NCBI GenBank assembly: GCA_947503785.1
Contig: CANNFB010000003.1
Coordinates: 186,001 to 250,000 of the forward strand
Reading direction: 5' to 3'
DNA length: 64,000 bases
DNA from: an uncultured Campylobacterales bacterium
GTDB lineage: Bacteria; Campylobacterota; Campylobacteria; Campylobacterales; Arcobacteraceae
In this document: positions 43,947 to 64,000 of the stretch, in pieces
Position numbering within the stretch: position 1 is the stretch's first letter
Layout: every line of letters begins with the position of its first letter
Program-made: the position numbers and the translations under genes
The notes under the pieces: generated by a model
Told to the model about the DNA's origin: nothing
What the model saw: the letters and a program-made list of their open reading frames with translations, nothing else
Databases searched by the model: none

Positions 43947-43968
43947 GTGTTACCTAAAAGTGTTACCT
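43947..43968 (+). repeat. Left GTGTTACCT pair (candidate integrase arm sites)
   Basis: Two direct copies of GTGTTACCT (43947-43955, 43960-43968) spaced 13 bp start to start. A matching pair lies near the other end at 48981-49001 in the same orientation. Repeated short sites near both att sites are typical of arm-type integrase or excisionase binding sites. Confidence 0.55.
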
Positions 43969-43985
43969 CTAAAAAAGGTTATAAA

Positions 43986-45086: not shown

Positions 45087-45091
45087 AAAAT

Positions 45092-45937: not shown

Positions 45938-46088
45938 CGGACACCCTGAACTATATACTTTTATCTAATTCAATTCAATTAAAACACTATTCCAATTAAA
46001 AACGGACTATATCCTCTTGCTCTAAACTTCTATTACACGTGAATTCAAAAGTCTTTATCAAGGTACCAGATAAAGCAAAAGGTAGAAG

Positions 46089-46292
46089 ATGAGTAACTTA
46101 ATAAACACTCAAAAAGAATGGTTAACTCCTACAGATTTAGAACAAGAATATGGATTTAGTAAAAGTACCCAATCAAAAATGCGAATGAACTCAAATAGCT
46201 CAACAATTCCTTTTAGTAAAATTGGTGGTAAATTTATCAGATATAATAGAAACAGAATTAACGAATGGTTACATAACCACGAGGTGCAATAA
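46089..46292 (+). CDS. AlpA-type excisionase / HTH protein
   Basis: A 67-residue winged-helix DNA-binding protein of the AlpA/MerR-like excisionase class. WLTPTDLEQEYGFSKSTQSK forms the helix-turn-helix and IPFSKIGGKFIRYNRNRINE the wing, followed by a short recognition tail. Such proteins bend att DNA for excision and activate integrase genes. AAGG lies 6 bp before the ATG. Its stop overlaps the start of the next small frame as TAATG. Its gene is in the middle of the element, downstream of the integrase and not beside it. Confidence 0.82.
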   Translation: MSNLINTQKEWLTPTDLEQEYGFSKSTQSKMRMNSNSSTIPFSKIGGKFIRYNRNRINEWLHNHEVQ

Positions 46293-46396
46293 TGGAAAAG
46301 TTTGTACTTATAAATATAAATGATTATGTACCTTTAAAATCTACCTTTTACTGTCCCAATATTAAGTTTAGTTTAAGGCTATTAAAATGGAATTAA
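46292..46396 (+). CDS. 34-residue small frame, translationally coupled on both sides
   Basis: A small frame (MEKFVLININ start, RLLKWN end) whose ATG overlaps the excisionase stop as TAATG and has GAGGTG 5 bases before it. Its stop lies 10 bases inside the next gene. It has good translation signals but no recognisable domain. It may encode a micropeptide or serve only to couple translation of the GIY-YIG-like gene to the excisionase. Confidence 0.45.
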   Translation: MEKFVLININDYVPLKSTFYCPNIKFSLRLLKWN

Positions 46397-47052
46397 ATGA
46401 CCTTGAAATTGCATATGATATTATTAATAACTTCCAAAAGTATGATACTTTATCAAACCCACCAAGAATAAATAAACTTGATTATAAAGTACCTAGCATT
46501 GATGGTATAAGCCGATATGAACATGGTAAAGATGTTGATAGTGTCAAACCAAATACTCTAAAATATATCCTTTATTATTTGCATAATATAGAACATAGTA
46601 TTATTATTGATACAGTAATTGCATTACTTTATTATTGGAAGATTAGAAAAAACAATAAAAGCATGTTTGAAAAGTCATATATTGAAATAGTTAATCACTA
46701 TACATTAACTCATAACAGTTATTCATTCAATTATAGCAATGGAGAGTGTGTTTATTTAATTAAAATTGATATAGGGTCAGAGACACTTTACAAGATAGGT
46801 AGTACAACTAATTTTAATCAAAGAATGACAAATATATTATCTGATATAAAATCAAAATATGAGTATGTATCCTGTAATATAGAACCTTTACAAGTTGAAT
46901 ATACATCAATGTATTATGAAATTGAAACGAATATATTAAATCAGTTAAAAGAAAAGAAACATAATTTTTATTTTAATGGACATACCGAATCTTTTAAGAA
47001 GATTGAAACAATTGATATATTTAATAAATTTATTGAAGGAATAGGAGCGTAA
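46387..47052 (+). CDS. GIY-YIG-like (T5orf172/MUG113-type) protein
   Basis: A 221-residue protein. The C-terminal half (about 115-215) has the GIY-YIG pattern CVYLIKIDIGSETLYKIGST with NFNQRMTNIL downstream, and a Glu in YYEIETNILNQLKEKKHNFY at the expected metal-site position, as in the T5orf172/MUG113 group. The N-terminal half is unassigned. Such domains can be nucleases but many are untested. AAGG lies before the ATG, and the 34-residue frame overlaps it. In an integrative element it may act on DNA in mobility or in competition with other elements. Confidence 0.68.
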   Translation: MELNDLEIAYDIINNFQKYDTLSNPPRINKLDYKVPSIDGISRYEHGKDVDSVKPNTLKYILYYLHNIEHSIIIDTVIALLYYWKIRKNNKSMFEKSYIEIVNHYTLTHNSYSFNYSNGECVYLIKIDIGSETLYKIGSTTNFNQRMTNILSDIKSKYEYVSCNIEPLQVEYTSMYYEIETNILNQLKEKKHNFYFNGHTESFKKIETIDIFNKFIEGIGA

Positions 47053-47180
47053 GTTTTTATCCTTAATATATAAACCTTGATGATTAATAAGAATTGTAGT
47101 ATTATCTATTCTATAATAAGTTATTTTATTATAGAGAACTTATGTAATCATATTGAAGATAATTATATTAAAGGCATAAA

Positions 47181-48119
47181 TTGAAAATCATTAAAATATT
47201 AGCAATTTTATACATATTAGTAATGACTGCATTAGTAGTTGAAGAAATACTTTTACCTTTTTGGATAAATGTTGTTTCATTCTCAAAGGTTCTAATTGAA
47301 AAAGGTTACCTTATTAGTGGAATTAATGACTTTTTAATGATTGGATTACTTATACTTATTATTGTACTTACAATCAAAGTATTGGTAAGAATAGTATTAT
47401 TTATTTGGAGAGTAACCCTTGATGATGTAATTAAATTTATAGGTAAAATATTTAAATCATCTAAAAAAAGTATTAAACAAGAGATTGAAAATTCTAAACC
47501 TTTTAGAAATAAAGTAAAAGAAAAAATAAAAGATGAAGTAGTAGATGGAATAGAAGAATCCAAAGCTTTTTATAACAAAACCAAAAATGTCTATGAAAAG
47601 ATTAAACTGGAATGTAGTGAAGAAAACCCAACAGAGCATAAGAAAGACTTGAATGATAAATTTTCACCTAAAGAAAGTGATATAAAAGAAGTAATTAAAC
47701 AACTAAATAAAGCTGAACTAGATTATGATGATATCAATGATGTTTATGAAAATACACTCATGCAAAATAATATGTTAACTATAGAGATGAATAACGAAGA
47801 AAATTTTTCTTTACCTTTTGATAATAATACAAAACTCACTATTGCATTAAATATAATAAACTATAAATGCTATGAAATCAATCAAGAATATTTAAAGAAC
47901 TATGACGTAGAAAGTCTAATTAATGATTATAAAAAAATGACCTTTAATGAATTCATTATGCAATATGAACTTAATACTAATGAGATTGATTTACTTATTG
48001 AATGGCAAGATAAGAACCTAAAGAAAGATTACAAAGAAAGAATTGTAGATTTTAATAATTATAATGTTATCTCAAGCAAAATTGGAGAGGAAATATTTGT
48101 ATCAATTATAAAAAAATAG
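47181..48119 (+). CDS. Membrane protein with long helical cytosolic domain, unknown
   Basis: A 312-residue protein starting with TTG at 47181 (AAAGG 7 bases upstream). Two N-terminal membrane helices (about 3-25 and 48-75) are followed by a basic amphipathic or coiled-coil region (about 85-150, many Lys/Glu) and an acidic, mostly helical C-terminal domain (about 160-312). No known family is recognised. It is the last clear gene in the element. A two-helix membrane protein with a soluble head in this position could be a cargo effector, but that is inference. Confidence 0.6.
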   Translation: MKIIKILAILYILVMTALVVEEILLPFWINVVSFSKVLIEKGYLISGINDFLMIGLLILIIVLTIKVLVRIVLFIWRVTLDDVIKFIGKIFKSSKKSIKQEIENSKPFRNKVKEKIKDEVVDGIEESKAFYNKTKNVYEKIKLECSEENPTEHKKDLNDKFSPKESDIKEVIKQLNKAELDYDDINDVYENTLMQNNMLTIEMNNEENFSLPFDNNTKLTIALNIINYKCYEINQEYLKNYDVESLINDYKKMTFNEFIMQYELNTNEIDLLIEWQDKNLKKDYKERIVDFNNYNVISSKIGEEIFVSIIKK

Positions 48120-49209: not shown

Positions 49210-50154
49210 TTATCTTAGATTATTTAGTTTTAAAAAATTTGTTGAACGTTTATGTCCTAATGATTCTGCTCGCTTCATCCATTCTATTGCTTTTACTTCA
49301 CTTTTAACAACCCCTAAGCCATTAAAATAGAAAAAACCTATATAGTACATTGCTTTTTTATTATTTGCTTTAGAAGCTTCCATATACAAATCAAAAGATT
49401 TTTTATAATTTATATTTACAATACTACCTTCTCTATAAATATCTGCTAGTTTTATTTGAGCTAATACATTTCCTGTACTTGAAGACTTTTCAAATAATGA
49501 TATTGCTTTTTCATGATTTGTTTTTATACCATCACCTGATAAATACATTAGTGCCAAGTTATATTGTGCAATAGGATTATTTGCATTTGCAGATTTTTCA
49601 TACCAGTACGCTGCTTGCTTTAAATCTTTCTTAACACCTTTTCCAAAATAGTACATTGAAGCTAGATTATTTTGTGCAATGATTACACCTTGTAATGCTG
49701 CTTTTTTATACCATTGGAAAGATTTACTTAAGTTCACTTTATTAGTACTCTTTTCATAAATCATTGCGATATTTAATTGGGCTAAGGCATAACCTTGTTC
49801 TGCTGATTCTTCATAATAGTATTTAGCTTTATTAATATCTTTTTTAACTGTTTCACCCATATAATACATATATGCTAGATTATTTAAAGCTTGCATATTT
49901 CCATTATTAGCAGCTTGTTCGTACCAAAAGAATGCAAGTTTTTTATTTATAGTAGTTCCTAGACCTTTGTAGTTCATCAGGCCTAGGTTATATTGAGCAT
50001 TAACATTATCATCTAATGCTAATTGTGTAAATTGTTCTAGAGCTATTGTATACTTTCCATCTTTTAGATTTGTAGCTGCTTCTTTTATACTAAGAGCATT
50101 TACAATAGTTGTATTAACAATAAGAAAAAAAAGTAAAAATATGATTTTCTTCAT
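49210..50154 (-). CDS. Sel1-repeat protein, secreted
   Basis: A 314-residue protein with a signal peptide (about 1-20, cut near VNA) and seven or eight Sel1 repeats covering residues 40-300. The repeats carry the pattern A-x-x-x-LG-x-x-Y-x-x-G-x-x-x-x-x-A-x-x-W-Y-x-x-A (for example LAYMYYMGETVKKDINKA). Such solenoids bind partner proteins in the periplasm. It is the last gene of the long secretion cluster, 8 bp after the lipoprotein gene, so it may scaffold the secretion or c-di-GMP signalling proteins encoded upstream. That role is inferred from position only. Confidence 0.85.
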   Translation of the reverse strand: MKKIIFLLFFLIVNTTIVNALSIKEAATNLKDGKYTIALEQFTQLALDDNVNAQYNLGLMNYKGLGTTINKKLAFFWYEQAANNGNMQALNNLAYMYYMGETVKKDINKAKYYYEESAEQGYALAQLNIAMIYEKSTNKVNLSKSFQWYKKAALQGVIIAQNNLASMYYFGKGVKKDLKQAAYWYEKSANANNPIAQYNLALMYLSGDGIKTNHEKAISLFEKSSSTGNVLAQIKLADIYREGSIVNINYKKSFDLYMEASKANNKKAMYYIGFFYFNGLGVVKSEVKAIEWMKRAESLGHKRSTNFLKLNNLR

Positions 50155-50162
50155 TTTAAATC

Positions 50163-50984
50163 CTATTCATTTTCTTTATTTAATTGCTCATCTTTTATAT
50201 CGTTTTCTATTTTATCTAATGTTCTATCAATATTTAGATTAACTTTTCTATCTAGTTCTTCAATCTCTTTATCTAGTTCTTCATCAAGTGTTTTTTCATC
50301 GCTTGTTTGACTATCATCTGAATTTTCTTTGTTTAAAAGATCACTCTTAACTTCATCTAATGCAAATTCAATGTCATCATTTAAAATATCATCATTAATT
50401 TCATTTAAGTTTTTCGTTTTTTTTCTATCTTTTATTAATATATTTTTAACTATATCCTCTTTTGTAGGGCTAGTTTTTGTATACATATCAATACTATCAC
50501 ATAGAGTTCCTCTTACATTTTTAACACTATCACAAATAAGCCATTCATCATTTAAACCTAATAGGTAATCAAGTCTACTCCAAAAAAGTTCATGATTATA
50601 TTTACTTAAGTATTCTATTTTTTCTTCATCAAAATCAGTAATTCTAATTAACTCTAGTCTAGCAAAAGAAGTATTGTCTTTTTCATCAATAGTTAAATTC
50701 CATCTATCTTCATGTGTTACAGGATAAAAAAAGAAATGTGACATTTTTGTTTTAGAAACGGTAAGATGATCTCTATAAGAATCAATTCTAAATTGATTTT
50801 TATCTGCTAATAAAAATAGTTTTTTAGAAGCTTCAAAAATCGCATCTTTTGAAATATTTTTATACTCTTTTTTTGTAAAGTTTTCAACTTCATTTTCTGC
50901 TTCCATATTTACAACTTTACTAGGACTTGTTGTTGAACAAGCTGTAAAAAATATTATAAAAATTAAATAAATATATTTGCTCAT
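50163..50984 (-). CDS. Outer-membrane or periplasmic lipoprotein of the secretion cluster
   Basis: A 273-residue lipoprotein. The signal ends in the lipobox FFTAC with the acylated Cys at about residue 16. The folded part (about 35-165) has a beta-alpha pattern (FRIDSYRDHLTVSKTKMSHF, RWNLTIDEKDNTSFARLELI). The C-terminal 90 residues are highly acidic and coiled-coil like. I do not recognise the family; the folded part faintly resembles small OM-assembly lipoprotein domains. It lies between the GGDEF-EAL receptor gene (15 bp) and the Sel1 gene (8 bp). The function is unknown. Confidence 0.7.
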   Translation of the reverse strand: MSKYIYLIFIIFFTACSTTSPSKVVNMEAENEVENFTKKEYKNISKDAIFEASKKLFLLADKNQFRIDSYRDHLTVSKTKMSHFFFYPVTHEDRWNLTIDEKDNTSFARLELIRITDFDEEKIEYLSKYNHELFWSRLDYLLGLNDEWLICDSVKNVRGTLCDSIDMYTKTSPTKEDIVKNILIKDRKKTKNLNEINDDILNDDIEFALDEVKSDLLNKENSDDSQTSDEKTLDEELDKEIEELDRKVNLNIDRTLDKIENDIKDEQLNKENE

Positions 50985-50999
50985 TTTATCCTACCTATC

Positions 51000-53180
51000 T
51001 TATCTAGTTGTGGCATAAGTACCAAGTCTTTCTAATAAATCATAATCAGCTTCAAGCTTTACACTATCTGCCATAATATTTATATTATTTAGTTCTCCAA
51101 AGATTATGATATTTTTAACTTTATGTTTTTTTACAATATCACTTGTAAAGTTATTCGTATAATCTTTATTCATTCTAATATAATCTAGTTTCACTTCTTC
51201 TAATTGATTTAAAGGATATTCATCTGTTTTATATCTTTTAAGAAGAATTTTTGCACCCATCTCATGAACTTCAGATACAAATTGTTCAAAAGCTTTTTTA
51301 TGTAAATAAGCACTATATGAAGTAATACTAAATACTATATATTTCATAATTGGTTCATTTTCTTTTAATATTTTTCTTAACCAAATCATAAACTCTTTAT
51401 TTTCAACAGAACTAATAGAAAGGTTTATTGATATTTCATGTTTTATTTCTTTTTCTTTTATAAGTCTTATTGTTTTTTCAATTACTTCTTTATCAAACTT
51501 ATCTGCAATTTTAAGTTTCTGTGCAACTGCAATAAAAGAACCTATTGAAATTTTTTCATTATTATGATCATATAATTGAGGAGAAACTTCATTCATAACT
51601 AAGGTATTGGGGTTGTCAAAAAGATAAGTATCTAAGACAAAGTCTATTTCAAATTCTGCTTTGTTAATTACTTCAATAACGTTGTTATTAATAGAAGTGT
51701 AATCTTTTTCTATATCTTTATCACTAATAATATGATAAGAATTTTCACCTTTATCTTTTGATATTTTATAAGCATTATTAGCAGATGATAGAACTGTTTC
51801 TAAACTACCATATAAATCAAAAGACGTTCCACCAATATGAATTAAATCATCAGGTACATCATATATAAATGGCATTCTATCATTTATCTCTGTGATTATT
51901 GATTCACACATCTGTACTGATTCTTCAAAGTTAATATCTTTTGCGATAATTGCAAATTCTGAGCCATAAAACCTATACATTTTTAAATTTGTTTTACTAA
52001 TATTAAAAATAATATTTTTAACAATATTTGAAAATGTCTCAATAAAATTGTTAATATAACCCGAATCATGTTTCTTACTAAGTTGTACTAAATTATCAAT
52101 TCTTATTACAAAAACATATCCATTTGTTGATGTTACAAACATACTTTTTATATCAAAATCAAAGATATATTTATTAGGAAGTCCTGTTAGCGTATCAGCA
52201 TAAGTTTTCTTTTCTAGCGAATCTTTATTTGAATTTATTTCATTTTTTAGTGTTGCTATTTTTGAAGAAACTTTTGAAACTTTTGTTGTAAGTTCTTTAA
52301 TCTCTTTAGTTCCTTCAAATTTTCCCTTATCTAAAGCTGCAAATTTATTATCAAGAATATCATCTAGATAATTGTTTATATATAAAACGGGCTTCGTTAC
52401 ATATTTTTTGAAAATAAATTTATGATAAAAACCTAATATAAATAAAATAGGTAAGTATATAATCAAGTTAAATATAATGATATGGATAAGAAATGATTGA
52501 AGTTCTTCTTTTACTTTTTTACTATTTAAAGAATAAGAGATAGTGGCAATATTAATATCATCAACTACTATATTTTCTATTTTATTTGAAATATCAATTG
52601 TAATTAAAGAATCAATCCATGAAGAAGAATCTTCTTTCGTGCCCTTTTCAAGTTTGATATTTGAAAAGTCTAATTTCGTAATAAAGTTTTTAATTTCATT
52701 TTTTTTATAAACTTGATATCTAATATTAATTGGTTGTAATTTTTCATAATTTGAACTAGCCATAAATTCATATAAAGATGTTTTTTCTATTTTTTTTATG
52801 AATCCATATCTAGCATCAATTACTATTTCAGCGATTGTCCAAGACTTATCATCAAAGTTTGGTGTTGCGTTTATTAATTTATCTTTACTAAATACAAATC
52901 TATTATGTTCAATTTCGATTAAGTCAAATAATGTTGTTTCTAAAACTTTATTTACTTCTGTTTCAATAATATTCTTGTCAGACTTAAGAATATTATTATG
53001 AACTTTTGAATTTAAATAATTTATATTTAATTGATAATTATTTTTAGCATTTATTAATATTTTTTCTTTATAACTATTAAAATAATAGTAGCTAGTAAAT
53101 ATCAAAGCTAAGAAAAGAAAAATAAGTAATAGTATATTGTTAATAGAACTAGTATCTGTGAACTTATTTAATCTTTTCAT
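51000..53180 (-). CDS. LapD-like degenerate GGDEF-EAL receptor
   Basis: A 726-residue inner-membrane signalling protein. The architecture is an N-terminal helix (about 14-33), a periplasmic LapD/MoxY-like domain (about 35-230), a second helix (about 232-255), HAMP-like, then GGDEF (about 330-490) and EAL (about 500-715). The GGDEF site is YGSEF (near 406) and the EAL start is NEVSPQL (near 530), so both catalytic sites look dead, as in LapD. LapD-type proteins bind c-di-GMP through the inactive EAL and hold the LapG protease, controlling release of a surface adhesin. The start overlaps the TolC-SPOR gene stop by 4 bp (ATGA). No lapG is in the window. Confidence 0.87.
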   Translation of the reverse strand: MKRLNKFTDTSSINNILLLIFLFLALIFTSYYYFNSYKEKILINAKNNYQLNINYLNSKVHNNILKSDKNIIETEVNKVLETTLFDLIEIEHNRFVFSKDKLINATPNFDDKSWTIAEIVIDARYGFIKKIEKTSLYEFMASSNYEKLQPINIRYQVYKKNEIKNFITKLDFSNIKLEKGTKEDSSSWIDSLITIDISNKIENIVVDDINIATISYSLNSKKVKEELQSFLIHIIIFNLIIYLPILFILGFYHKFIFKKYVTKPVLYINNYLDDILDNKFAALDKGKFEGTKEIKELTTKVSKVSSKIATLKNEINSNKDSLEKKTYADTLTGLPNKYIFDFDIKSMFVTSTNGYVFVIRIDNLVQLSKKHDSGYINNFIETFSNIVKNIIFNISKTNLKMYRFYGSEFAIIAKDINFEESVQMCESIITEINDRMPFIYDVPDDLIHIGGTSFDLYGSLETVLSSANNAYKISKDKGENSYHIISDKDIEKDYTSINNNVIEVINKAEFEIDFVLDTYLFDNPNTLVMNEVSPQLYDHNNEKISIGSFIAVAQKLKIADKFDKEVIEKTIRLIKEKEIKHEISINLSISSVENKEFMIWLRKILKENEPIMKYIVFSITSYSAYLHKKAFEQFVSEVHEMGAKILLKRYKTDEYPLNQLEEVKLDYIRMNKDYTNNFTSDIVKKHKVKNIIIFGELNNINIMADSVKLEADYDLLERLGTYATTR

Positions 53181-56100
53181 CTAATAGTTCCAATTTGTTT
53201 AGCAAAAGGCTTTGCTTTTTGTATTAATGGATGTAAAGATTTAGCTTTTTCTTTTGCTTGCTCAATATCAGTAAAAACACCGTAGTATATTGTACTTTTT
53301 TTACCATTTTTAGCAACTATATAATATGGATCTAATCCAAATCTTTGTGCGTACCATTTTACTCTGTTACTATCAATAGAAGTTAATTTTAATGTGTAAT
53401 TCTTTTTAGATGCTGAATTAAACTTCTTTTTGAAACTTATTAATTTTTTAGAATATGGTGTTTCAACCACTTTTTTTACTGTTGTTTTTTGTTTTTTTAT
53501 AACTTCTGTTTTTTTAGCTTTTTTTTGTTCTTCTTGTTTCTTTAATTCTTCTAATCTTTTCTCTTCTATTATTTTTGCTTTCTTTTCTTCTTCTATTTTT
53601 TGCTTTTTCATTATTGAAGCTTCGATTATCTCTTCTTTTTTAGATTCATTTGAACTATCTATATTTAAATTGTTTTTTAAATATGATTCTTGTGTTCTGA
53701 ATATCTTTTGTAAGAATGGTTTATTTCTCTTTAATCTATTATCTAATTTTGACATCCCTAATGATGCTTTTGTTCTATTACTATAAACTCCAGTCATCAC
53801 TATCATCTTATTACTATTTGAATGTACTATTATCGATTTATTCTCTAAGTTATGTTTTCTTACAAATGCTTGTGCATCTTCTTTTGTATCAAGCGATGCT
53901 AGGAAAATTGAATAGTAATCTTTTGGAGCTTTTAAAAACTTCTTCTCAAAGTTTGAAATTTGATTTACTTCTTCTTCACTAAGCTCTTTTTCTTTCTCTA
54001 ATTGTGCAATTCTCTTATCTTCTTCTAGTTTCGCAACTTCAACTGCTTTCTTCTCTTCTGCAACTCTTTGTTCTTCTTGTTTCTTTAATTCTTTTAATCT
54101 TTTCTCTTCAGCTATTTTCTCTTTTTCAGCTTCTTCTTTTGCTTCTGCTTGTGCTTTTTCTTTTTTAAGTCTTAACTCTTCTGCTTTTACTTGTTTAATT
54201 TCTTCTTGCTTTTTCTCTTCTGCTTCTTTTTCTAGTCTTTCATTTTCTTTCTTAGTTTTTTCTTCTTCAATTTTCTCAAGTCTTAACTCTTCTGCTTCAA
54301 TCTCTTTAATCTCTTCTTGATTTTTTTCTTTTTCAATTGCAGCTTGTTTCTTTTGTTCTTCTAGCTTTTTTTCTTCTATAAGTTTTGTTAATTCATCTTT
54401 TTCTGTATCAAATTCTTGATCATCTTGATAATTAATATTATCAACTTTTGGATTATTTTTAAAATATGATTCTTGTGTTCTAAATATTCTCTGAAGAAAT
54501 GGTTTATTTTTCTTTAAAGTATCTGATAACTTAGATATTCCTTCATCACCTTCATCACTAGATTCATAAACTCCTGACATTATAATCATCTTACCACTAT
54601 TTGAAAACACGATTATTGACGTTTCTTCTAAGTTATGATTTGATATAAAAGACTCTGCATCTTCAATAGTATCAAGTGATGCTAGGAAAATTGAAAAATT
54701 ATCTTTAGGAGCAGCTAAGAACTTTTTTTCAAAATCTGTTAACTCATTATTATTGTTTATGTCTACTTTATTTATATTTTCTATCTCTACTCTATCTATT
54801 TCTTCGGCTTCAGAATCTTTACTTATTAGATTTTTCTTCGCTTCTTCTTTTGATAAATTTATATATTCATATTCAACTTTTTCTTTTTTTATAATATTGA
54901 ATTCAAAATTGTCTTGATATTGTTTTTTTACAAAAGATATTCTTTCAACAATAGGAAATGTTTTTTTATTTTCAGACTTAAAGCTATTTACTTTATCTTC
55001 TAAGGTTTTATTATAGTTTTCATAAACTCCTGAAACTAATTTTATAAGTTGTCCATTGTCACCGTATTTAAAGAAAAAAGATTCATCATAAATCTTATTT
55101 TTTAAAACAAATTCTTCTAGTTTATCAAGGTTTGTAAATGAAGAGATATTAATAGTATAATTAGTGTCTTTTGAATCTAAAAATTTATTTTTAAATTCTG
55201 TATTTGTTTTAAATTCTTCTTTCTTTACTGCTTGTCTTATTTTTTCTACTATTTTGATTTTAGTCTTTGGTTTTTCAACTTCCACTTTTAAACCATCTAT
55301 ATATTTATTATATAATGCTTTTATATCTTTAACTTTTTTTACTTTATATTTTCTATCTGTATTTTTTTCTTTAAAAGTTTTTAAATATTCTTTTGCATCT
55401 TGAATTGTCTTAAAATTATTATGTGCAATTCTTGTTTCAATATTATATGCATTTACAATATCATATGAAAATGAGTTTTTATCTAATTTATTCTCTTTTA
55501 TAAAATCAAAGGAATTATAGATATTTCCAAAAGAAGAAATCTCGATCATATAACTATCATCATCAAAAGAAATAAATTCTTTTAAAAATTTATTTATATT
55601 TTCATTAATAGAATTTTTAACTATTGGAAAAGGAATATCTTTTATATTTTCATCTTTTTCCTCTTTTTCTAAAAATTCTTTTTCATTTGAACTTTTTATT
55701 ACTTCACCAGTTTTTAAATCAATCCCTAAAGAATCACCTTTTTGGGGAAATACTGAAACCTTATAATCACTTTTTGTAAAATCAATAAACTTTGAACTTT
55801 CAGGGTCTACATCGAAAAATGATGCTAAGTCTCCACTTAATTCTAAGATATTAAAGAAGTCAGTAATATTACTTTTTTCATAGTTTACATATTCTGTTTC
55901 TGCAGTATTTAATTGTCTTTGACCTTGGAGTAAAGTATTTAAATCTTGTTCTCCTAGTTTAAAGGCATCCCAGTAAGAACTAACCATTTTTCTTGATGCT
56001 TTTACTTCTGTAATAGTACTTTCTAAAGCTTGGGAAACTGATACTATTGAAGTATAAACTTTTGATAAGTTCCACTTTAATTTTTTCTTTTCTTCAGATA

Positions 56101-57262
56101 ACTTATAGTTTAAATCTCTTATTTTACTATTTGAAGTAAGTACTTTATTCTTGTCTTTTCCACCATTGAAAATATTATATGAAATATTTATTTTTCCATT
56201 TATATCTGTTTCATCTGCTTCTAAATCTTCTGCTTCTGTAGATTTTTTATAAGATAATTCAAGATCTACTTTTGGTCTAAAGTTTGCTTTCGCTTTCTTT
56301 TGAATAAATTTTTCATCTTCAATTGTTTTATAATAATTTACTAACTCTTTGTTATTCTCTAAAGCTCTTTTATATAATTCATCAAAGTTACTAATATTTA
56401 CATCAAAATTCTTTTCGTAAGGTAATGTTTTTTCAAAATTTCTTCCAACTATATATTCATAATATCGAAGAGATTCAATAAATTTTGAATTAACTTTTAC
56501 AAGCTTTGTCATTGCATTTGCAACATTGGCTTTTATTGAAGTTATATCTCCAATTGAAGCTGCACCATTATCATATTTAATAGTAACAATTTCTAGAATC
56601 TTTTTTAACTTCTTCATATTTCGTTCATTTACCATAACAGAACGACTTGTAAATACAACTCCAAAATAAGCTTTGATAGCTTTTTTGATTTCTTTTTCTA
56701 ATGTAGTTTTATACTGATTTTTTGCAACTTCTAATTTCTTTTCAACACTTCTTACATTATTGAAAGTTGCTCCACCTGAATAAATATTTTGTTTTAAAAC
56801 AACTCTAAAATTATTATCATTAAAATATTTGAATTTTTGGAATTCTTCTCCACTTGGTGTTGATCTAGTTTTTCCATAATTATATTCAGCATTAATAATT
56901 GGATAATAATCAGCCATTGCATCTTTTAGTTTTAGCTCATACTGAATTACTTTTTCTCTTGCTGATTTTAGTAAATCAGTTCGTGATAAAGTTTCTAAAA
57001 CAACATCAATCAGTTTTACTTTTGCATAATTACTTACATCAATAGTACTACTTTCTATATTTGAATTAGTATTTTTACTGCTTGAAAAAACATTAGTAAC
57101 TTCTTGTTTATTTACCGCTTCTAAAGGTGATTTCATTCCTTCAATTCTATTTAATGTTGTAGGTGTTATTAAGTTTAAGTCTTTATTATCATCATCTAAT
57201 GCATTCATTGGTGTAGACATATAGATTAAGATTACTGAACACTTTAATATCTTCTTTTTCAC
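53177..57262 (-). CDS. TolC-family outer-membrane protein fused to SPOR-like repeats
   Basis: A 1,361-residue protein, about three times the usual TolC length. It has a signal peptide (about 1-22), then a TolC/OEP domain (about 70-510) with two helical-barrel repeats (LKSAREKVIQYELKLKDAMA and SYWDAFKLGEQDLNTLLQGQ regions). Five SPOR-like units follow, near 569, 700, 854, 1116 and 1287, with starts such as YMIEISSFG, YTINISSFT and YSIFLASLDT. Units 3 and 4 are near duplicates. Between them lies a Lys/Glu-rich helix (about 947-1092). SPOR domains bind denuded peptidoglycan glycans. The start is GTG at 57262 sharing one base with the upstream TAG stop (TAGTG), with AGGGTG before it. Confidence 0.85.
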   Translation of the reverse strand: MKKKILKCSVILIYMSTPMNALDDDNKDLNLITPTTLNRIEGMKSPLEAVNKQEVTNVFSSSKNTNSNIESSTIDVSNYAKVKLIDVVLETLSRTDLLKSAREKVIQYELKLKDAMADYYPIINAEYNYGKTRSTPSGEEFQKFKYFNDNNFRVVLKQNIYSGGATFNNVRSVEKKLEVAKNQYKTTLEKEIKKAIKAYFGVVFTSRSVMVNERNMKKLKKILEIVTIKYDNGAASIGDITSIKANVANAMTKLVKVNSKFIESLRYYEYIVGRNFEKTLPYEKNFDVNISNFDELYKRALENNKELVNYYKTIEDEKFIQKKAKANFRPKVDLELSYKKSTEAEDLEADETDINGKINISYNIFNGGKDKNKVLTSNSKIRDLNYKLSEEKKKLKWNLSKVYTSIVSVSQALESTITEVKASRKMVSSYWDAFKLGEQDLNTLLQGQRQLNTAETEYVNYEKSNITDFFNILELSGDLASFFDVDPESSKFIDFTKSDYKVSVFPQKGDSLGIDLKTGEVIKSSNEKEFLEKEEKDENIKDIPFPIVKNSINENINKFLKEFISFDDDSYMIEISSFGNIYNSFDFIKENKLDKNSFSYDIVNAYNIETRIAHNNFKTIQDAKEYLKTFKEKNTDRKYKVKKVKDIKALYNKYIDGLKVEVEKPKTKIKIVEKIRQAVKKEEFKTNTEFKNKFLDSKDTNYTINISSFTNLDKLEEFVLKNKIYDESFFFKYGDNGQLIKLVSGVYENYNKTLEDKVNSFKSENKKTFPIVERISFVKKQYQDNFEFNIIKKEKVEYEYINLSKEEAKKNLISKDSEAEEIDRVEIENINKVDINNNNELTDFEKKFLAAPKDNFSIFLASLDTIEDAESFISNHNLEETSIIVFSNSGKMIIMSGVYESSDEGDEGISKLSDTLKKNKPFLQRIFRTQESYFKNNPKVDNINYQDDQEFDTEKDELTKLIEEKKLEEQKKQAAIEKEKNQEEIKEIEAEELRLEKIEEEKTKKENERLEKEAEEKKQEEIKQVKAEELRLKKEKAQAEAKEEAEKEKIAEEKRLKELKKQEEQRVAEEKKAVEVAKLEEDKRIAQLEKEKELSEEEVNQISNFEKKFLKAPKDYYSIFLASLDTKEDAQAFVRKHNLENKSIIVHSNSNKMIVMTGVYSNRTKASLGMSKLDNRLKRNKPFLQKIFRTQESYLKNNLNIDSSNESKKEEIIEASIMKKQKIEEEKKAKIIEEKRLEELKKQEEQKKAKKTEVIKKQKTTVKKVVETPYSKKLISFKKKFNSASKKNYTLKLTSIDSNRVKWYAQRFGLDPYYIVAKNGKKSTIYYGVFTDIEQAKEKAKSLHPLIQKAKPFAKQIGTIR

Positions 57263-58029
57263 TATTTTTTCACCCTAATAATTAAATACCCATTGTCTTC
57301 ATTTACTTTTTCTTTTATTTTAGTACTTGATAATAAATCAATTCTTACATCTTTTTTATCATAATCAAGTTTTCTTATCAAGTTTCTAACGCCAATAGTT
57401 CTAGCTAATGAAACTTGTTTAGCGATAGTTGCACTTGCTAAACTTTTTGGGTCAGCAGCTGTAATCATGATTTTATGATTACTATATTTACTTTTTGTAT
57501 TTTCTATAAATACCTTTAATTTTTTTGTAATTTCATTGTCAATAAAGATTTCATTGCCTTTAAATGTAACTATGAAATACTCATCTGTTGAAATCGTAGC
57601 TTGCTTTGATTTGTTATCATCATCTTTTATATCTTTTACATCTATTCCACCAGATTCTATTTGTGCTTCTTTTTTTTCTTTAGCTTTTACTGTTTTTTCT
57701 TCAATAATCTTTTTTAATCTTATTATTTCACTTTGCATAACTTGTACAGAACTTGCTGGCGTAGGTTGTTTTTGAGTTATTGCTTCTGTAGTAGATTCAG
57801 TTTTTTTAACAATTTCCTCTTGAATTTTTACGGACTCTGGATTATCATTTAAAATTAAATCATCTGTTGTGATAGAACCTGTATATGAGACTTTATATTT
57901 AAACTGAGCGTAATATCCAAGGTTTACCAAAACAACTAATAAAAATAGTAACATTACTAGAATAACAGAGGAGAAGATATCAACAAATGATGGCCATGGG
58001 TTAAATTCTTCTTCACATCTATTTGCCAT
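57262..58029 (-). CDS. MotB/OmpA-like inner-membrane protein
   Basis: A 255-residue protein with one N-terminal membrane helix (about 18-42). Its Asp in PSFVDIFSSVILVMLLF sits where MotB, ExbD and ZorB carry the proton-binding acid. A linker and coiled coil (about 65-130) precede a C-terminal OmpA/MotB-like peptidoglycan-binding domain (about 145-255; NHKIMITAADPKSLASA, QVSLARTIGVRNLIRKL). The next gene upstream encodes the MotA/TolQ-like partner 11 bp away, and the TolC-SPOR gene overlaps its stop by one base. The pair should form a proton-driven motor in the inner membrane. Confidence 0.8.
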   Translation of the reverse strand: MANRCEEEFNPWPSFVDIFSSVILVMLLFLLVVLVNLGYYAQFKYKVSYTGSITTDDLILNDNPESVKIQEEIVKKTESTTEAITQKQPTPASSVQVMQSEIIRLKKIIEEKTVKAKEKKEAQIESGGIDVKDIKDDDNKSKQATISTDEYFIVTFKGNEIFIDNEITKKLKVFIENTKSKYSNHKIMITAADPKSLASATIAKQVSLARTIGVRNLIRKLDYDKKDVRIDLLSSTKIKEKVNEDNGYLIIRVKK

Positions 58030-58040
58030 GTATATTAAAC

Positions 58041-59177
58041 CTACTTACTTTCTATCTTATTTATTCTATTATTTAAAGAACCTACTAATTCTATAAGTAA
58101 TTTATTATTTTCTTCTTGTAAAGCAAGGCTTTTTTTAACAGTTCTATGTTCGGCTAATATTACATTTGATATTTCTTGTAATGATTCTTCCATCATTGAT
58201 GCATTTGAAAATTGATTTACATTTAATTCTCTTAAGTTATTTACAATATTTTCTAATAATACTGATTCTTTTTCAATACTACTATTTGTATTTACTAAGT
58301 TTTCAGTAATTAGATTATAAATATCCTCAGATGATTTATTTGATTTATCTAGCTTGTCTGTGAAGTCACCCATTGTATCAACAAAGACATCTAAAAATCC
58401 ACCTTTTGTATTCATAGTTTGAGGTGTAGATTCGAAATTTTGATTTGATATTTGAGTTTGTTCCATAGAATCTGAACTTTGAGAATCAATGATTTTACCT
58501 TTCATCCAATCTTCAATATCGTTCATAAATGCTGCTTGATTTCTTGTAAGGATATATTGCATTACATTTAAGATTACAGCTGATGCAACTCCAAATAATG
58601 AAGATGCAAATCCAATAGACATTCCGCCAAGTGGCCCTGCGAAACTTGTCATTACTTCACCAATATCAATATCATCTCCACCAAAAGATAAAATAATTGC
58701 ACCCATTTCATCAATGGCTACTAGAAGTCCGGTAAAAGTTCCAAAAAGTCCAAGCATTAAAGAAGTTCCAACAAAGAAACTTGTATATCCTTTTTGATTA
58801 AAAAACTGTTCACTTAACCAATCAGTTACATCTTTTGCTTCACTTTCTGTGAAATAAAGTACACCTTTTTTTGCTCTTTTATTAAACATGTGTGCAATAG
58901 TTGCAGGGAAAATACCTGTAATACCTTTTAAATAAAACTCTAAAGCTTCACCTTTTTTATATGCTAAAATACCAAAAGTTCCAGAAAGCATTGTAAGTTT
59001 TATAGCTGCTTGATATAGTATTAAAAGTCCAATTGCAAATATAGTTAAAATAGCAACGTTAAAAGTTAATGTTGCCATAAAGAATGACATAATCAAATCA
59101 ACATTTGAAAATACTAGGAAAACTAGAAAAAGAATAAATATAAAATAAATCTTTAATATTTTTATACGTCTCATCAA
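58041..59177 (-). CDS. MotA/TolQ/ExbB-like proton-channel protein
   Basis: A 378-residue membrane protein with four predicted helices (about 8-28, 36-60, 135-158, 185-210). The segment FFVGTSLMLGLFGTFTGLLV and the second one GGMSIGFASSLFGVASAVIL are the paired helices typical of the MotA/TolQ/ExbB fold. A long C-terminal cytosolic tail (about 230-378) with coiled-coil content resembles the ZorA-type tail. It is expected to form a ring with the MotB/OmpA-like neighbour and drive an envelope process from the proton gradient. It starts 7 bp after the Cache gene. Confidence 0.85.
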   Translation of the reverse strand: MMRRIKILKIYFIFILFLVFLVFSNVDLIMSFFMATLTFNVAILTIFAIGLLILYQAAIKLTMLSGTFGILAYKKGEALEFYLKGITGIFPATIAHMFNKRAKKGVLYFTESEAKDVTDWLSEQFFNQKGYTSFFVGTSLMLGLFGTFTGLLVAIDEMGAIILSFGGDDIDIGEVMTSFAGPLGGMSIGFASSLFGVASAVILNVMQYILTRNQAAFMNDIEDWMKGKIIDSQSSDSMEQTQISNQNFESTPQTMNTKGGFLDVFVDTMGDFTDKLDKSNKSSEDIYNLITENLVNTNSSIEKESVLLENIVNNLRELNVNQFSNASMMEESLQEISNVILAEHRTVKKSLALQEENNKLLIELVGSLNNRINKIESK

Positions 59178-60244: not shown

Positions 60245-61522
60245 TTACTGTTCAATAAGCGCGTTTTTTCCAATATTCTTCAGTGGTTTAATAATATATT
60301 GTAATATTGTTTTCTTTCCTGTTAGTATATTTATGTTTGCAACCATTCCTGGCAAGATTGGTAAATCTGGAGCAAATTGATTTACATCTGCTTTTACTTT
60401 AACTAAATAGAAAACACTTCCATTTCTATCTTCAAAAGAATCTGCTGAAATGGATATTATTTCAGCCTTTAATAAACCATATTTAGAAAAATCATATGCC
60501 GTGATTTCCACTGAAACTTCTTGTCCACTCCAGATTAATGCTCTATCAGAAGTATTTATTTTAGCTTCAATAGTTAACGAATCTTCAATTGGTGTAATTT
60601 CAGCCATTTTATCTCCAGCTTTTACTATTCCACCTACGGTATAAAAATATAATTTATTTATAATTCCATTTACAGGAGAAATAACATCTTTTCTTAGTTC
60701 CCTATCTGTATTGGCTTTATTTTTTTCAATAAGCTTGTTTATTTCAGCTTTAATTGTTGAGTATTTTTGTAAGTGTTTTGATCTTATTTCAGATTTTACA
60801 GTTTTAATTCTTCCTCTTGATTCTTGTATCTCTTCTTTTATAATAGGTATAGAATTTCTAGTTTCTGATAGCTTTGTAACAATACTTTGTTTTTTAGAAA
60901 GCTCACTTATATATTGTTTCTTTGAAACAACTTTCTTTTTATATAAAGATTCAAGTATTTTCATATTCGCTTGTGCAAGATTTAATTCTAAATTTAGATT
61001 ATCAAACTTTGTTTGTGCTTCTTTTAACTTATATTTTTTTTGCTTTAGTTGATCTTCAGCAATACTTATTTTTGTTTCTCTATTTTGTAAATCTTCATTG
61101 AATATTCGTTTTTCATTTTCAATAATATCTGGAATATTAATAAGTAGTTTTTTTGGAAAAATAACTTCTTCTTTTTCATCAATAGAAGCTTTTAATCTTA
61201 TAAAGCTTGCTCTAAAAGCTAATAAATCAATCTCTTTTGCTTTTAAGTCTGCTTTAAAAAACTCATTTGAAAGAGTATAAATTACATCACCTTTTGAAAC
61301 AGTATCTCCCTCTTTAACTCTTATATTAGAGATAATTCCACCTTCAAAGTTTTGTAAGATTTTTGTCTGTCCTGAGGGTACAACTTTTCCAGTTCCTCGT
61401 ACTACTTCATCAACTTCACTTAAAAAAGCCCAAGTTAAAAAGGCAATAAAAAACAACATAATAGGAACAACTGAAACATAATAATTCCATTTTGTTTCTT
61501 CAAATAATTTATCACTACTCAT
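60245..61522 (-). CDS. Type I secretion membrane-fusion protein (HlyD/LapC)
   Basis: A 425-residue periplasmic adaptor linking the ABC transporter to the outer-membrane TolC. It has an N-terminal cytosolic stub and one membrane helix (about 14-36), and a beta-barrel/lipoyl half (GTGKVVPSGQTKILQNFEGG, IRVKEGDTVSKGDVIYTL). A long coiled-coil hairpin follows (about 110-280), then the second lipoyl half (VISPVNGIINKLYFYTVGGI, KAGDKMAEITP) and the barrel. It starts 7 bp after the ABC gene. The order ABC-HlyD-...-TolC is that of RTX or large-adhesin exporters. Confidence 0.93.
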   Translation of the reverse strand: MSSDKLFEETKWNYYVSVVPIMLFFIAFLTWAFLSEVDEVVRGTGKVVPSGQTKILQNFEGGIISNIRVKEGDTVSKGDVIYTLSNEFFKADLKAKEIDLLAFRASFIRLKASIDEKEEVIFPKKLLINIPDIIENEKRIFNEDLQNRETKISIAEDQLKQKKYKLKEAQTKFDNLNLELNLAQANMKILESLYKKKVVSKKQYISELSKKQSIVTKLSETRNSIPIIKEEIQESRGRIKTVKSEIRSKHLQKYSTIKAEINKLIEKNKANTDRELRKDVISPVNGIINKLYFYTVGGIVKAGDKMAEITPIEDSLTIEAKINTSDRALIWSGQEVSVEITAYDFSKYGLLKAEIISISADSFEDRNGSVFYLVKVKADVNQFAPDLPILPGMVANINILTGKKTILQYIIKPLKNIGKNALIEQ

Positions 61523-61529
61523 TTAATAC

Positions 61530-63653
61530 TTACCCTTTTTGCTGTAATGCAGCTAGTACTTTGTCTTTTGGACCGTCAGCAACTATCTTACCATTGTTTA
61601 ATACTATCACTCTATCTACAAGCTCTAAAGCTGCAAACCTATGTGTGATAACAATAAGTGTCTTATCTTTTAAAACTTGTTTTACATGACTTATTAATGT
61701 TTTTTCTAAACCAACATCTAATCCTGTCGTTGGTTCATCTAGTACCATAATTGGAGGATCATTTAAAATAGCACGGGCTAAGGCTACTAAGTGTCTTTGA
61801 CCAACGGAAAGGTTTGAACCTCGCTCACCTACTTGCAAGCCATCACCCTGACCTGATTTTTTAACTAAATCTTCTAATCCCGTTAGTTTAATCAAAGCCA
61901 TCATTCGCTCTTTACTAATAGGCTTTGATATTTCAATATTTTCTTTTAATGAACCTGAGAATAAAAATGGCTCTTGAGGCATAACTCCCACATTTTGTCT
62001 AACTTCTACAGGATGTAAAGTTGAGATTTCATGTCCATCTAAATAAATACTTCCAGTAGTAGCTGTATCAAGTCCCGTTAGAAGTCTTAAAAAAGTAGTT
62101 TTACCCGCTCCTGTTTGTCCAATAATACCAACTTTTTCACCTGCTTTTATATTTAAGTTACAAGTTTCTAGTGAAGCATATTTACTATTTTTATAGAAGA
62201 AAGAAACATTTGAAAATTCTATATCACCTTTTAGTTTTCCTATACCTATTTCTACATTTTTTTCATTTTCTAAAGGCAAGTGCCAAAATTCATTGATATT
62301 GTTTAATGACTCTTTTATTTCTTTAAATCTAATTAACATCATAGAAGTTTGAATAACAGGAACCATAGCCCTACTAGAAAGAATAGTAACAGCAATCAAT
62401 CCACCAACTGTAAGATTTTTAGCTGCTATTTCAAAAACACCAACTACAATTACAGCCATTGTAACAAACTGTACAACTGTTTGAGATAGATTCATAGCAA
62501 ATACGTTTAAAGACTGTATTTTATGTCCAATATTATCTGTAACTGCTACTAAACTTCTCCAGTTAAATAGTTTTGTAGAACTTGCATTTGAAAGTTTAAT
62601 TATCTCACTTCCTTGTATAGTTTCTACTAAGTAAGAGTTTTTTGATTGTACGTTTTCAATATTTTTTTTACTTAAATTAGCAATTGGTATTTGCATAATT
62701 ACATTAAAAATAATGATTATAATTGCAACTACTATAGGAACTGCGGCTACTGCTGGTGAAATTATAAAGATTACGATAACAGCAATAAAGAAAAAAGGTA
62801 AATCAATAACTTGAAGGATAGATTTTGTGGCAAAGAAATCTTTTATTTGACTAAGTTCCCTAAAAAGATTTGCTTTTGAACCAACTAGCATATTATCATA
62901 TTCAGATTTTAAATTAAGCATTCGTTTCATTAGCTCTTCTTCTAAATAAACACCTAACTTTTTACCTACTTTTTCTATGATATGATTTCTTACACTTTTA
63001 AAATATATATCAAAAAGTAAGATTATAACAACACCAAAAGCAAGTACAAAAAGAGTTTCAACTGCATTATTAGGTACTACTCTATCATAAACACTCATTG
63101 TAAATAAAGGTACAGCAAGTGCAAAAATATTTATGAAAAATGTAAGAAAACCAATTTCTATGTATGCACGCCAAAAAGTTTTTACAGGATTCCAAAACCA
63201 AGATTTTGACCTATTTACGTCTAATAATTTTTCTTTTTTAGCATCTCTAAATATTAAGATCGCTCTTTTGAAATGTTTTAAAAAACTAGGGTTTTCTTTG
63301 ATTTGTTCTTTTGTTTTTGGGTCATAAAGATATATATCTCTATCTTTTTTAATATAAACAAAAGGATTATTGTTTTTGTCTAAAATAATACATGGAAAAA
63401 AATGTGAAGGAATATCCGAAGCATCTATATCTTTTTCAAGAGCACTTAATCCTACTTCATTTGCAACATCAATTGCAATTTCAGGAGTAAAACCTGAAGT
63501 AGATTTTGCTGAAAAGTTTTGTATTGTTTCTAAGGAAATATCTCCAAAATAAAAATCTAGGACATACTTCAAAGAGTATAACAAAGGGAAATCTTCCCTA
63601 TGTTTTTGTTCTTCTACTTCATTGATTATTTCTGTGTTTAAGTTTTCTTCCAC
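61530..63653 (-). CDS. Type I secretion ABC transporter with cysteine-less C39-like domain (LapB type)
   Basis: A 707-residue exporter. Residues about 15-140 form a C39 peptidase-like domain. The catalytic Cys position is not conserved (HREDFPLLYSLKYVL), so it should bind substrate and not cut it. Six membrane helices span about 165-440. The nucleotide-binding domain has Walker A GQTGAGKTTFLRLL (near 509), signature LSVGQRHLVALARA (near 608), Walker B PIMVLDEPTTGLDV and the switch His in VITHRFAALE. Such LapB/LssB-type exporters secrete large repeat adhesins in one step. The substrate gene is not in this window. Confidence 0.93.
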   Translation of the reverse strand: MEENLNTEIINEVEEQKHREDFPLLYSLKYVLDFYFGDISLETIQNFSAKSTSGFTPEIAIDVANEVGLSALEKDIDASDIPSHFFPCIILDKNNNPFVYIKKDRDIYLYDPKTKEQIKENPSFLKHFKRAILIFRDAKKEKLLDVNRSKSWFWNPVKTFWRAYIEIGFLTFFINIFALAVPLFTMSVYDRVVPNNAVETLFVLAFGVVIILLFDIYFKSVRNHIIEKVGKKLGVYLEEELMKRMLNLKSEYDNMLVGSKANLFRELSQIKDFFATKSILQVIDLPFFFIAVIVIFIISPAVAAVPIVVAIIIIIFNVIMQIPIANLSKKNIENVQSKNSYLVETIQGSEIIKLSNASSTKLFNWRSLVAVTDNIGHKIQSLNVFAMNLSQTVVQFVTMAVIVVGVFEIAAKNLTVGGLIAVTILSSRAMVPVIQTSMMLIRFKEIKESLNNINEFWHLPLENEKNVEIGIGKLKGDIEFSNVSFFYKNSKYASLETCNLNIKAGEKVGIIGQTGAGKTTFLRLLTGLDTATTGSIYLDGHEISTLHPVEVRQNVGVMPQEPFLFSGSLKENIEISKPISKERMMALIKLTGLEDLVKKSGQGDGLQVGERGSNLSVGQRHLVALARAILNDPPIMVLDEPTTGLDVGLEKTLISHVKQVLKDKTLIVITHRFAALELVDRVIVLNNGKIVADGPKDKVLAALQQKG

Positions 63654-63660
63654 TATTTAC

Positions 63661-64000
63661 CTATTTTATTTTTATTTTAAAATTACTAAAAATTTTAGCA
63701 TAAATAGACTGAAATACGCTTTCCCAAGACCTAGCACTCTTTTGTCTAAAAAGTTTTGCACTAGGATACCAAGGTGATATTTCACCTTTATTTTCCCATC
63801 TCCAATCAGGTACTTTTTGTAGAGGAATCCAAATAGGTACATTTAAAGCACCAGCTAAATGTGCAACTGAAGTATCTGAAGAAATAACTAAGTCTAACTC
63901 TTTCATTAAAGAAGCTGTCTTTGAAAAGTCTGTTAGTTTATCTGTTAAATCAACTATTTTATCTTCAAATCCAAGTTTTTTAATATCTTCTTTTTCAGGC
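63661..64000 (-). CDS. Glycosyltransferase family 9-like protein, 5' end cut by window edge
   Basis: The visible 3' portion (113 codons, open to the window end) shows the C-terminal part of a heptosyltransferase-like GT-B fold: TASLMKELDLVISSDTSVAH followed by LAGALNVPIWIPLQ. This is the donor-binding region of family GT9, often found fused behind TPR repeats. The Met at 63904-63906 is internal, since the frame continues upstream with conserved-looking sequence. It is 7 bp upstream of the ABC gene in the same direction, so a role in glycosylating a secreted adhesin is possible but unproven. Confidence 0.78.
   Translation of the reverse strand, partial: PEKEDIKKLGFEDKIVDLTDKLTDFSKTASLMKELDLVISSDTSVAHLAGALNVPIWIPLQKVPDWRWENKGEISPWYPSAKLFRQKSARSWESVFQSIYAKIFSNFKIKIK

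What the first reader, a model, noticed from the sequence alone, without database searches (positions are those of the whole stretch)
57262..59177. Proton-driven motor pair inside a type I secretion cluster
A MotA/TolQ-like and a MotB/OmpA-like protein sit between the exporter genes and the TolC-SPOR gene, with stop/start overlaps. Classic type I exporters need only ATP. A motor with a wall-binding arm could move or open the TolC-SPOR channel, energise adhesin display, or link it to the wall.
Basis: partly seen in the sequence, partly recalled or inferred. Interest (0 to 1): 0.65.

Follow-up and report, generated by a model that had tools for sequence, protein, structure and literature searches.

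The report
Proton motor tied to giant adhesin
Next to the genes that export an enormous sticky surface protein sits a pair resembling a proton-driven, wall-anchored motor, related to the Salmonella SiiA/SiiB pair, and in a sample of 397 genomes of the phylum the motor and that adhesin's N-terminal end occur in exactly the same genomes, which suggests that the motor works on the adhesin itself.

Summary
Window 58041-59177 encodes a MotA/ExbB/TolQ-type protein and 57262-58029 a MotB-like protein (one membrane helix with an invariant Asp, then a folded periplasmic domain). They lie in one co-directional block: giant adhesin, two modification genes, LapB-type ABC exporter, HlyD adaptor, cache-like membrane protein, MotA-like, MotB-like, TolC-SPOR, degenerate GGDEF/EAL protein, lipoprotein, Sel1 protein.

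The AlphaFold model of the MotB-like protein has SiiA (6QVP) as its five best PDB hits. Profiles of both proteins match an SPI-4-like operon in Chimaeribacter.

New here: the pair is widespread in Campylobacterota. All 46 loci have both genes; 44 have secretion or adhesin genes nearby. In 397 genomes, motor and adhesin N-terminal domain occur in the same 28; in three genomes they are not adjacent. No LapG lies in the cluster, and the regulator lacks the LapG-binding domain.

Best reading: a SiiAB-type motor that uses proton flow to hold, position or release the adhesin stub, not to power export. A new variant of a known kind; function is inferred, not shown.

The parts
57262..58029 (-). MotB/SiiA-like protein (255 aa): TM helix about 11-44 with invariant Asp17 in motif FNPWPSFVDIFSSVILV, linker of low model confidence, OmpA/SiiA-type periplasmic domain about 144-255
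   Evidence: 27 homologues; AF2; Foldseek top 5 = SiiA 6qvp, E about 1e-5; profile match to SPI-4-like SiiA of Chimaeribacter, 41 bits
58041..59177 (-). MotA/TolQ/SiiB-like protein (377-378 aa); conserved channel helices GLFGTFTGLLVAID and PLGGMSIGFASSLFGVASAVILN, helical C-terminal tail
   Evidence: PF01618 E 0.029; ExbB/TolQ/ZorA/PomA folds; SiiB-like of C. arupi 42.5 bits; own ExbB/TolQ/MotA paralogues below 7 bits
59185..60138 (-). cache-like membrane protein (317 aa): TM 19-45, periplasmic domain, TM 297-317, no output domain; directly upstream of the MotA-like gene
   Evidence: dCache_3 E 0.016, weak; strong matches in the same 37 genomes as the MotA-like gene; 45 of 46 loci
60245..61522 (-). 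HlyD/LapC-type periplasmic adaptor
   Evidence: TIGR01843, 336 bits, above cut-off
61530..63653 (-). LapB/LssB-type ABC exporter with C39-like domain
   Evidence: TIGR03375, 741 bits, above cut-off 693
53177..57262 (-). TolC outer-membrane channel with C-terminal SPOR domain (1361 aa)
   Evidence: OEP 4.7e-31, SPOR 4.9e-11; OEP 30/30, SPOR 22/30 homologues
51000..53180 (-). degenerate GGDEF/EAL membrane protein, LapD-like in cytoplasmic domains but without a detectable LapD_MoxY_N periplasmic domain
50163..50984 (-). lipoprotein-like protein of unknown fold, part of the conserved block
   Evidence: 22 of 46 loci; N-terminus with FTAC
49210..50154 (-). Sel1-repeat protein closing the block
   Evidence: (PF08238 1e-62)
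63661..64000 (-). C-terminal part of TPR/glycosyltransferase-like gene; beyond the window follow an FkbM-type methyltransferase-like gene and the C-terminal end of the giant adhesin (contig end)
   Evidence: L006; naming of the two modification genes is from sequence look and general knowledge, not from a family scan

Best explanation
The pair is a SiiAB-type accessory motor of a type I secretion system. The MotA-like protein probably forms the ring and the MotB-like protein the central helices carrying Asp17, with a periplasmic domain that docks on peptidoglycan. Proton flow drives movement that acts on the N-terminal stub of the giant RTX-type adhesin while it sits in the TolC-SPOR channel: it keeps the stub locked and the adhesin displayed, or lets it go. 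The ABC transporter does the export. The cache-like protein and the degenerate GGDEF/EAL protein are likely inputs that gate the motor, in place of LapG proteolysis. Shown: gene order, conservation, predicted folds, homology to SiiA/SiiB-type proteins, co-occurrence with the adhesin N-terminal domain, absence of LapG from the cluster and of its usual docking and cleavage features. Inferred: proton conduction, wall binding, contact with the adhesin stub or TolC, and gating.
For: Fold: the top five PDB hits of the MotB-like model are SiiA; the MotA-like model matches ExbB/TolQ/ZorA (modest confidence, mean pLDDT 66.5). Profiles A1 and A2 match the SiiA-like and SiiB-like proteins of an SPI-4-like operon in Chimaeribacter arupi at 41 and 42.5 bits, against below 7 bits for the genome's own ExbB/TolQ/MotA paralogues. 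Linkage: 46/46 loci paired, 44/46 with TolC, exporter or adhesin genes; synteny in 8 relatives. Co-occurrence: MotA-like protein and adhesin N-domain are in the same 28 of 397 genomes, also where not adjacent (G042 about 148 kb apart; G044 and G331 on different contigs). In a divergent subgroup the adhesin gene follows the MotB-like gene directly. No LapG route visible: the regulator lacks LapD_MoxY_N while a true LapD-LapG pair lies on another contig; no AAG in the first 300 residues of 29 of 30 adhesins (one was seen only to residue 190); G046 and G052 have the motor but no LapG hit. Precedent: PMC6272769, PMC12607715.
Against: No experiment on this pair. Sequence similarity of the periplasmic domain to SiiA alone is negligible (1.8 bits), so that link rests on the fold model and the membrane-helix motif. 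For the MotA-like protein, alphaproteobacterial relatives with no exporter seen nearby (crude ORF comparison) score higher (57-66 bits) than the SiiB-like one. The adhesin N-domain shows no detectable similarity to the Chimaeribacter adhesin. Co-occurrence is not corrected for shared ancestry.
Confidence: 0.66

Rival explanations
1. The motor directly helps export: it pulls or cycles the TolC-SPOR channel so that a polypeptide of roughly 9,000-15,000 residues can be pushed out, supplementing ATP.
For: Pairing with very long adhesins (frames of 8,500-15,179 aa in many genomes); MotB-like and TolC genes overlap by 1 nt.
Against: In Salmonella, SiiE secretion is reported unaffected by loss of siiA and siiB (PMC12607715). 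Two other LssB-type exporters in the same genome have no motor beside them in the stretches held. Some adhesin frames are much shorter, though some of those are cut by contig ends.
Confidence: 0.15
2. The pair is a passive scaffold or sensor: it ties the secretion complex to the wall and reports proton-motive force or pH, without doing mechanical work.
For: Predicted wall-binding fold, SPOR on TolC, sensor-like neighbours; PMF sensing is one of the two published ideas for SiiAB (PMC6272769).
Against: Strict conservation of channel helices and Asp17 suggests that ion flow matters, although a sensor could need it too.
Confidence: 0.13
3. A general motor (ExbBD, TolQR, flagellar stator or Zorya defence) that lies here by chance.
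For: Shared superfamily; weak ZorA hits for the MotA-like protein (best 5.9e-07).
Against: No ZorB or other Zorya hit among the five proteins scanned; own ExbB/TolQ/MotA paralogues score below 7 bits; linkage and co-occurrence with the adhesin.
Confidence: 0.03

Closest known systems
SiiA/SiiB of the Salmonella SPI-4 type I secretion system (adhesin SiiE)
   Same: MotA-like plus MotB-like pair encoded with a type I exporter, TolC-type protein and giant adhesin; SiiA periplasmic fold is the best PDB match; the same type of membrane-helix motif (NPWPxFVDxFS) is in the SPI-4-like operon of Chimaeribacter.
   Different: Here the adhesin is RTX-type rather than BIg-type and up to 15,179 aa; a cache-like gene is fixed upstream; TolC often carries SPOR; a degenerate GGDEF/EAL protein, lipoprotein and Sel1 gene are added in the main group; gene order differs; taxon is Campylobacterota.
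Lap system (LapA adhesin, LapBCE exporter, LapD receptor, LapG protease)
   Same: LapB/LssB-type exporter, HlyD adaptor, TolC, LapD-like GGDEF/EAL protein next to a large RTX adhesin.
   Different: No LapG in the cluster, no LapD_MoxY_N domain in the regulator, no LapG site seen in 29 of 30 adhesin N-termini, and a motor pair is added.
ZorAB (Zorya)
   Same: Same superfamily, MotA-like protein with a helical cytoplasmic tail; weak profile hits; ZorAB among the fold hits.
   Different: No other Zorya component matched; context is adhesin secretion.
Alphaproteobacterial MotA/ExbB-like protein beside a PRK09039-type peptidoglycan-binding protein
   Same: Best remote scores for the MotA-like protein (57-66 bits); weak PRK09039 match of the MotB-like protein (1.1e-3). 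That the alphaproteobacterial partner is of PRK09039 type is my recollection, not tested.
   Different: No secretion genes seen around them in a crude ORF comparison; MotB partner much more distant (11-13 bits).

Membership tests
SiiAB-type T1SS motor | MotA/ExbB/TolQ-fold membrane partner | tested here: met
   Foldseek top hits ExbB/TolQ, also ZorA (model of modest confidence); profile match to SiiB-like protein
SiiAB-type T1SS motor | MotB-like partner with one TM helix, conserved membrane Asp, linker, periplasmic domain of SiiA fold | tested here: met
   sequence-only similarity of the periplasmic domain is negligible
SiiAB-type T1SS motor | encoded with type I exporter, TolC-type protein and giant adhesin | tested here: met
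SiiAB-type T1SS motor | adhesin homologous to SiiE (BIg repeats) | tested here: not met
   RTX-type repeats and a different N-terminal domain; hence called SiiAB-type motor, not SPI-4 system
SiiAB-type T1SS motor | peptidoglycan binding by arginines (SiiA R162, R167) | tested here: inconclusive
   invariant R210 falls at the column of the second SiiA arginine, while the first falls beside invariant K204, in a weak alignment
SiiAB-type T1SS motor | proton conduction and control of adhesin retention | not testable with these tools
   needs experiment
Lap (LapD/LapG) system | LapG protease encoded with the system | tested here: not met
   none in the cluster; a LapD-LapG pair lies on contig C18
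Lap (LapD/LapG) system | LapD with LapD_MoxY_N periplasmic domain | tested here: not met
   no match in the window protein, clear match in the C18 LapD
Lap (LapD/LapG) system | LapG cleavage site (AAG) near the adhesin N-terminus | tested here: not met
   none in 29 of 30 N-termini, TAAG at 218 in L189; the own-genome N-terminus is L188, without a site
Zorya | other Zorya components (ZorB, ZorC, ZorD/E) beside ZorA | tested here: not met
   PADLOC scan of five cluster proteins gives only weak ZorA hits among Zorya models; the other neighbours are identified as exporter, adaptor, TolC and GGDEF/EAL

The most novel reading that the evidence does not exclude
A proton-driven, signal-gated motor replaces LapG-type proteolysis as the way a large group of bacteria holds, moves or reversibly releases a megadalton adhesin: a dedicated cache-like sensor and a degenerate GGDEF/EAL protein control the motor, which acts on a specific N-terminal adhesin domain.
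Probability: 0.3. Interest if true: 0.78.

Novelty: new variant of a known kind. Interest (0 to 1): 0.56.

Why it matters
How SiiAB uses proton-motive force to control SiiE is described as unclear (PMC12607715). This widespread second lineage, with an adhesin domain that tracks the motor in the phylum sample, its own candidate sensor and regulator, and no visible LapG step, gives a comparative handle and concrete targets outside Salmonella. If right, force or proton flow on an adhesin stub is a general way to control surface attachment and biofilm formation.

Tried and rejected
PDB sequence searches of both proteins and of their alignments gave nothing usable; only folds and family profiles were informative. 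A canonical Lap system was considered and rejected on three features. Zorya and ordinary ExbBD/TolQR/stator were rejected. The idea that the invariant R210/R215 pair copies SiiA R162/R167 by spacing was dropped because the alignment places the second SiiA arginine at R210. Binding of c-di-GMP by the GGDEF/EAL protein could not be argued: both active-site motifs look degenerate and few residues are conserved. Paper searches gave no description of this motor-adhesin module in Campylobacterota; the library holds only open-licence papers, so this is not proof of absence.
Full report
What is there. The two genes exist as described. The window is bases 186001-250000 of contig C3 of a 2.76-Mb draft; its nearest named relatives are Arcobacter-type Campylobacterota. 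All genes of the block run on the - strand: adhesin C-terminus, FkbM-type gene and TPR/glycosyltransferase-like gene (partly beyond the window, L006), LapB/LssB-type ABC exporter, HlyD adaptor, cache-like protein, MotA-like, MotB-like, TolC-SPOR, degenerate GGDEF/EAL protein, lipoprotein, Sel1 protein. Families: TIGR03375 and TIGR01843 above cut-off, OEP plus SPOR, EAL plus GGDEF.

Support for a motor pair. Twenty-seven sequences were aligned for each protein. In the MotB-like protein the membrane-helix motif around Asp17 (FNPWPxFVDIFSS) is invariant at nearly all positions. In the MotA-like protein the two helices typical of the superfamily are strongly conserved. The AlphaFold model of the MotB-like protein (periplasmic domain mostly pLDDT 82-91) finds the Salmonella SiiA peptidoglycan-binding domain as its five best PDB hits (E about 1e-5, TM-score by target 0.74-0.79), then OmpA-like, Pal and MotB domains and ZorB. 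The MotA-like model has lower confidence (mean pLDDT 66.5) and matches ExbB, TolQ, ZorA and PomA.

Link to SiiAB by sequence. A scan of species genomes with the MotA-like alignment returned 46 Campylobacterota loci and 14 remote ones. One remote locus, Chimaeribacter arupi (L105), is an SPI-4-like operon: SiiA-like, SiiB-like, TolC, HlyD, BIg-type adhesin. Its SiiA-like protein matches SiiA 6QVP by sequence (1.8e-7). The window profiles score 41 bits (MotB-like) and 42.5 bits (MotA-like) against it, versus below 7 bits against the genome's own ExbB/TolQ/MotA paralogues. Alphaproteobacterial relatives score 57-66 bits for MotA-like but only 11-13 for MotB-like. The relation is therefore to a branch of the superfamily that holds SiiAB and alphaproteobacterial pairs, with SiiAB the closest members of known function. 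I did not build a tree.

Linkage and co-occurrence. Of the 46 loci, 46 have the MotB-like gene, 45 the cache-like gene (the other is cut by a contig end), 41 TolC, and 44 TolC, exporter or adhesin; the two without end 0.3-0.8 kb downstream. Synteny is conserved in eight relatives, including one where the exporter genes are inverted. In the family, 37 of 104 genomes carry the MotA-like gene, and strong matches to the cache-like protein are in the same 37. The strongest result concerns the adhesin N-terminal domain (alignment A3): in 397 genomes of the phylum the MotA-like protein and this domain were found in the identical set of 28. For random draws the chance is about 10 to the -43, but shared ancestry makes that number far too small. 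In the family sample there are 33 domain-positive and 37 motor-positive genomes; the two with the domain but no motor (G075, G096) and the six with motor but no domain (G018, G043, G046, G050, G066, G089) are all drafts in many contigs. In G042 motor and adhesin are about 148 kb apart, and in G044 and G331 on different contigs, so adjacency alone does not explain the pattern. In a divergent subgroup (L087-L096) the adhesin gene directly follows the MotB-like gene in most loci.

Adhesin. The frame is complete at 15,179 aa in G092, 10,734 in G026 and 9,997 in G068. In the window's genome it is split by a contig gap: N-terminal part with an open frame of 8,658 aa on C12, C-terminal 922 aa at the end of C3, so about 9,500 aa or more if these are one gene, which is an inference.

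Not a Lap system. The GGDEF/EAL protein lacks the LapD_MoxY_N domain that a true LapD of the same genome has; that LapD sits beside a LapG-type protease on contig C18. No AAG site was found in the first 300 residues of 29 of 30 adhesin N-termini (one was seen only to residue 190); one has TAAG at 218. G046 and G052 carry the motor but no LapG hit.

How it probably works. In Salmonella, secretion is reported intact without SiiAB but invasion is reduced, and retention rises with acidification and falls with an uncoupler (PMC6272769, PMC12607715). By analogy I infer that the motor acts on the retained N-terminal stub in the TolC channel. The SPOR domain (22 of 30 TolC homologues; at the N-terminus in L088) could hold the channel to the wall beside the motor. 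The cache-like protein (two membrane helices, no output domain) and the GGDEF/EAL protein are candidate inputs. None of this has been tested.

Novelty. A motor in a type I adhesin system is known from Salmonella. What I did not find described, in an open-licence library only, is this Campylobacterota lineage with its adhesin co-occurrence, cache-like partner and LapG-free regulator. I rate it a new variant of a known kind.

Noticed in passing
L164:8159 onward, L165, L038 (G092:C1, about 1662158-1707674): A single complete adhesin frame of 15,179 aa with 166 GGxGxD motifs and one cysteine: a very long bacterial open frame without stops.
   Followed up: partly
L161:6965-9824 (G000:C18): The same genome has a separate, canonical-looking LapD (with LapD_MoxY_N) next to a LapG-type protease; two further LssB-type exporters lie at L162 and L163 with no motor beside them in the stretches held.
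   Followed up: partly
L105 (Chimaeribacter arupi): An SPI-4-like operon (SiiA-like, SiiB-like, TolC, HlyD, BIg-type adhesin) outside Salmonella.
   Followed up: partly
L134-L138, L140 (G302, G360, G242, G321, G338, G391): MotA-like proteins in open frames of 522-812 aa, i.e. long C-terminal extensions, reminiscent of ZorA tails.
   Followed up: no
L087-L096: Divergent Campylobacterota subgroup: cache-like, MotA-like, MotB-like, adhesin; TolC on the opposite strand, with an N-terminal SPOR domain in L088.
   Followed up: partly
L106, L109, L112: Remote MotA-like proteins in Clostridia-labelled MAGs and a Synechococcus, beside MotB-like (L109) or OmpA-like (L112, 200 aa) proteins; role unknown.
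   Followed up: no
window 43947-48119: Integrase-like gene followed by genes of unknown function just beyond the block, possibly a small mobile element; judged by eye only.
   Followed up: no
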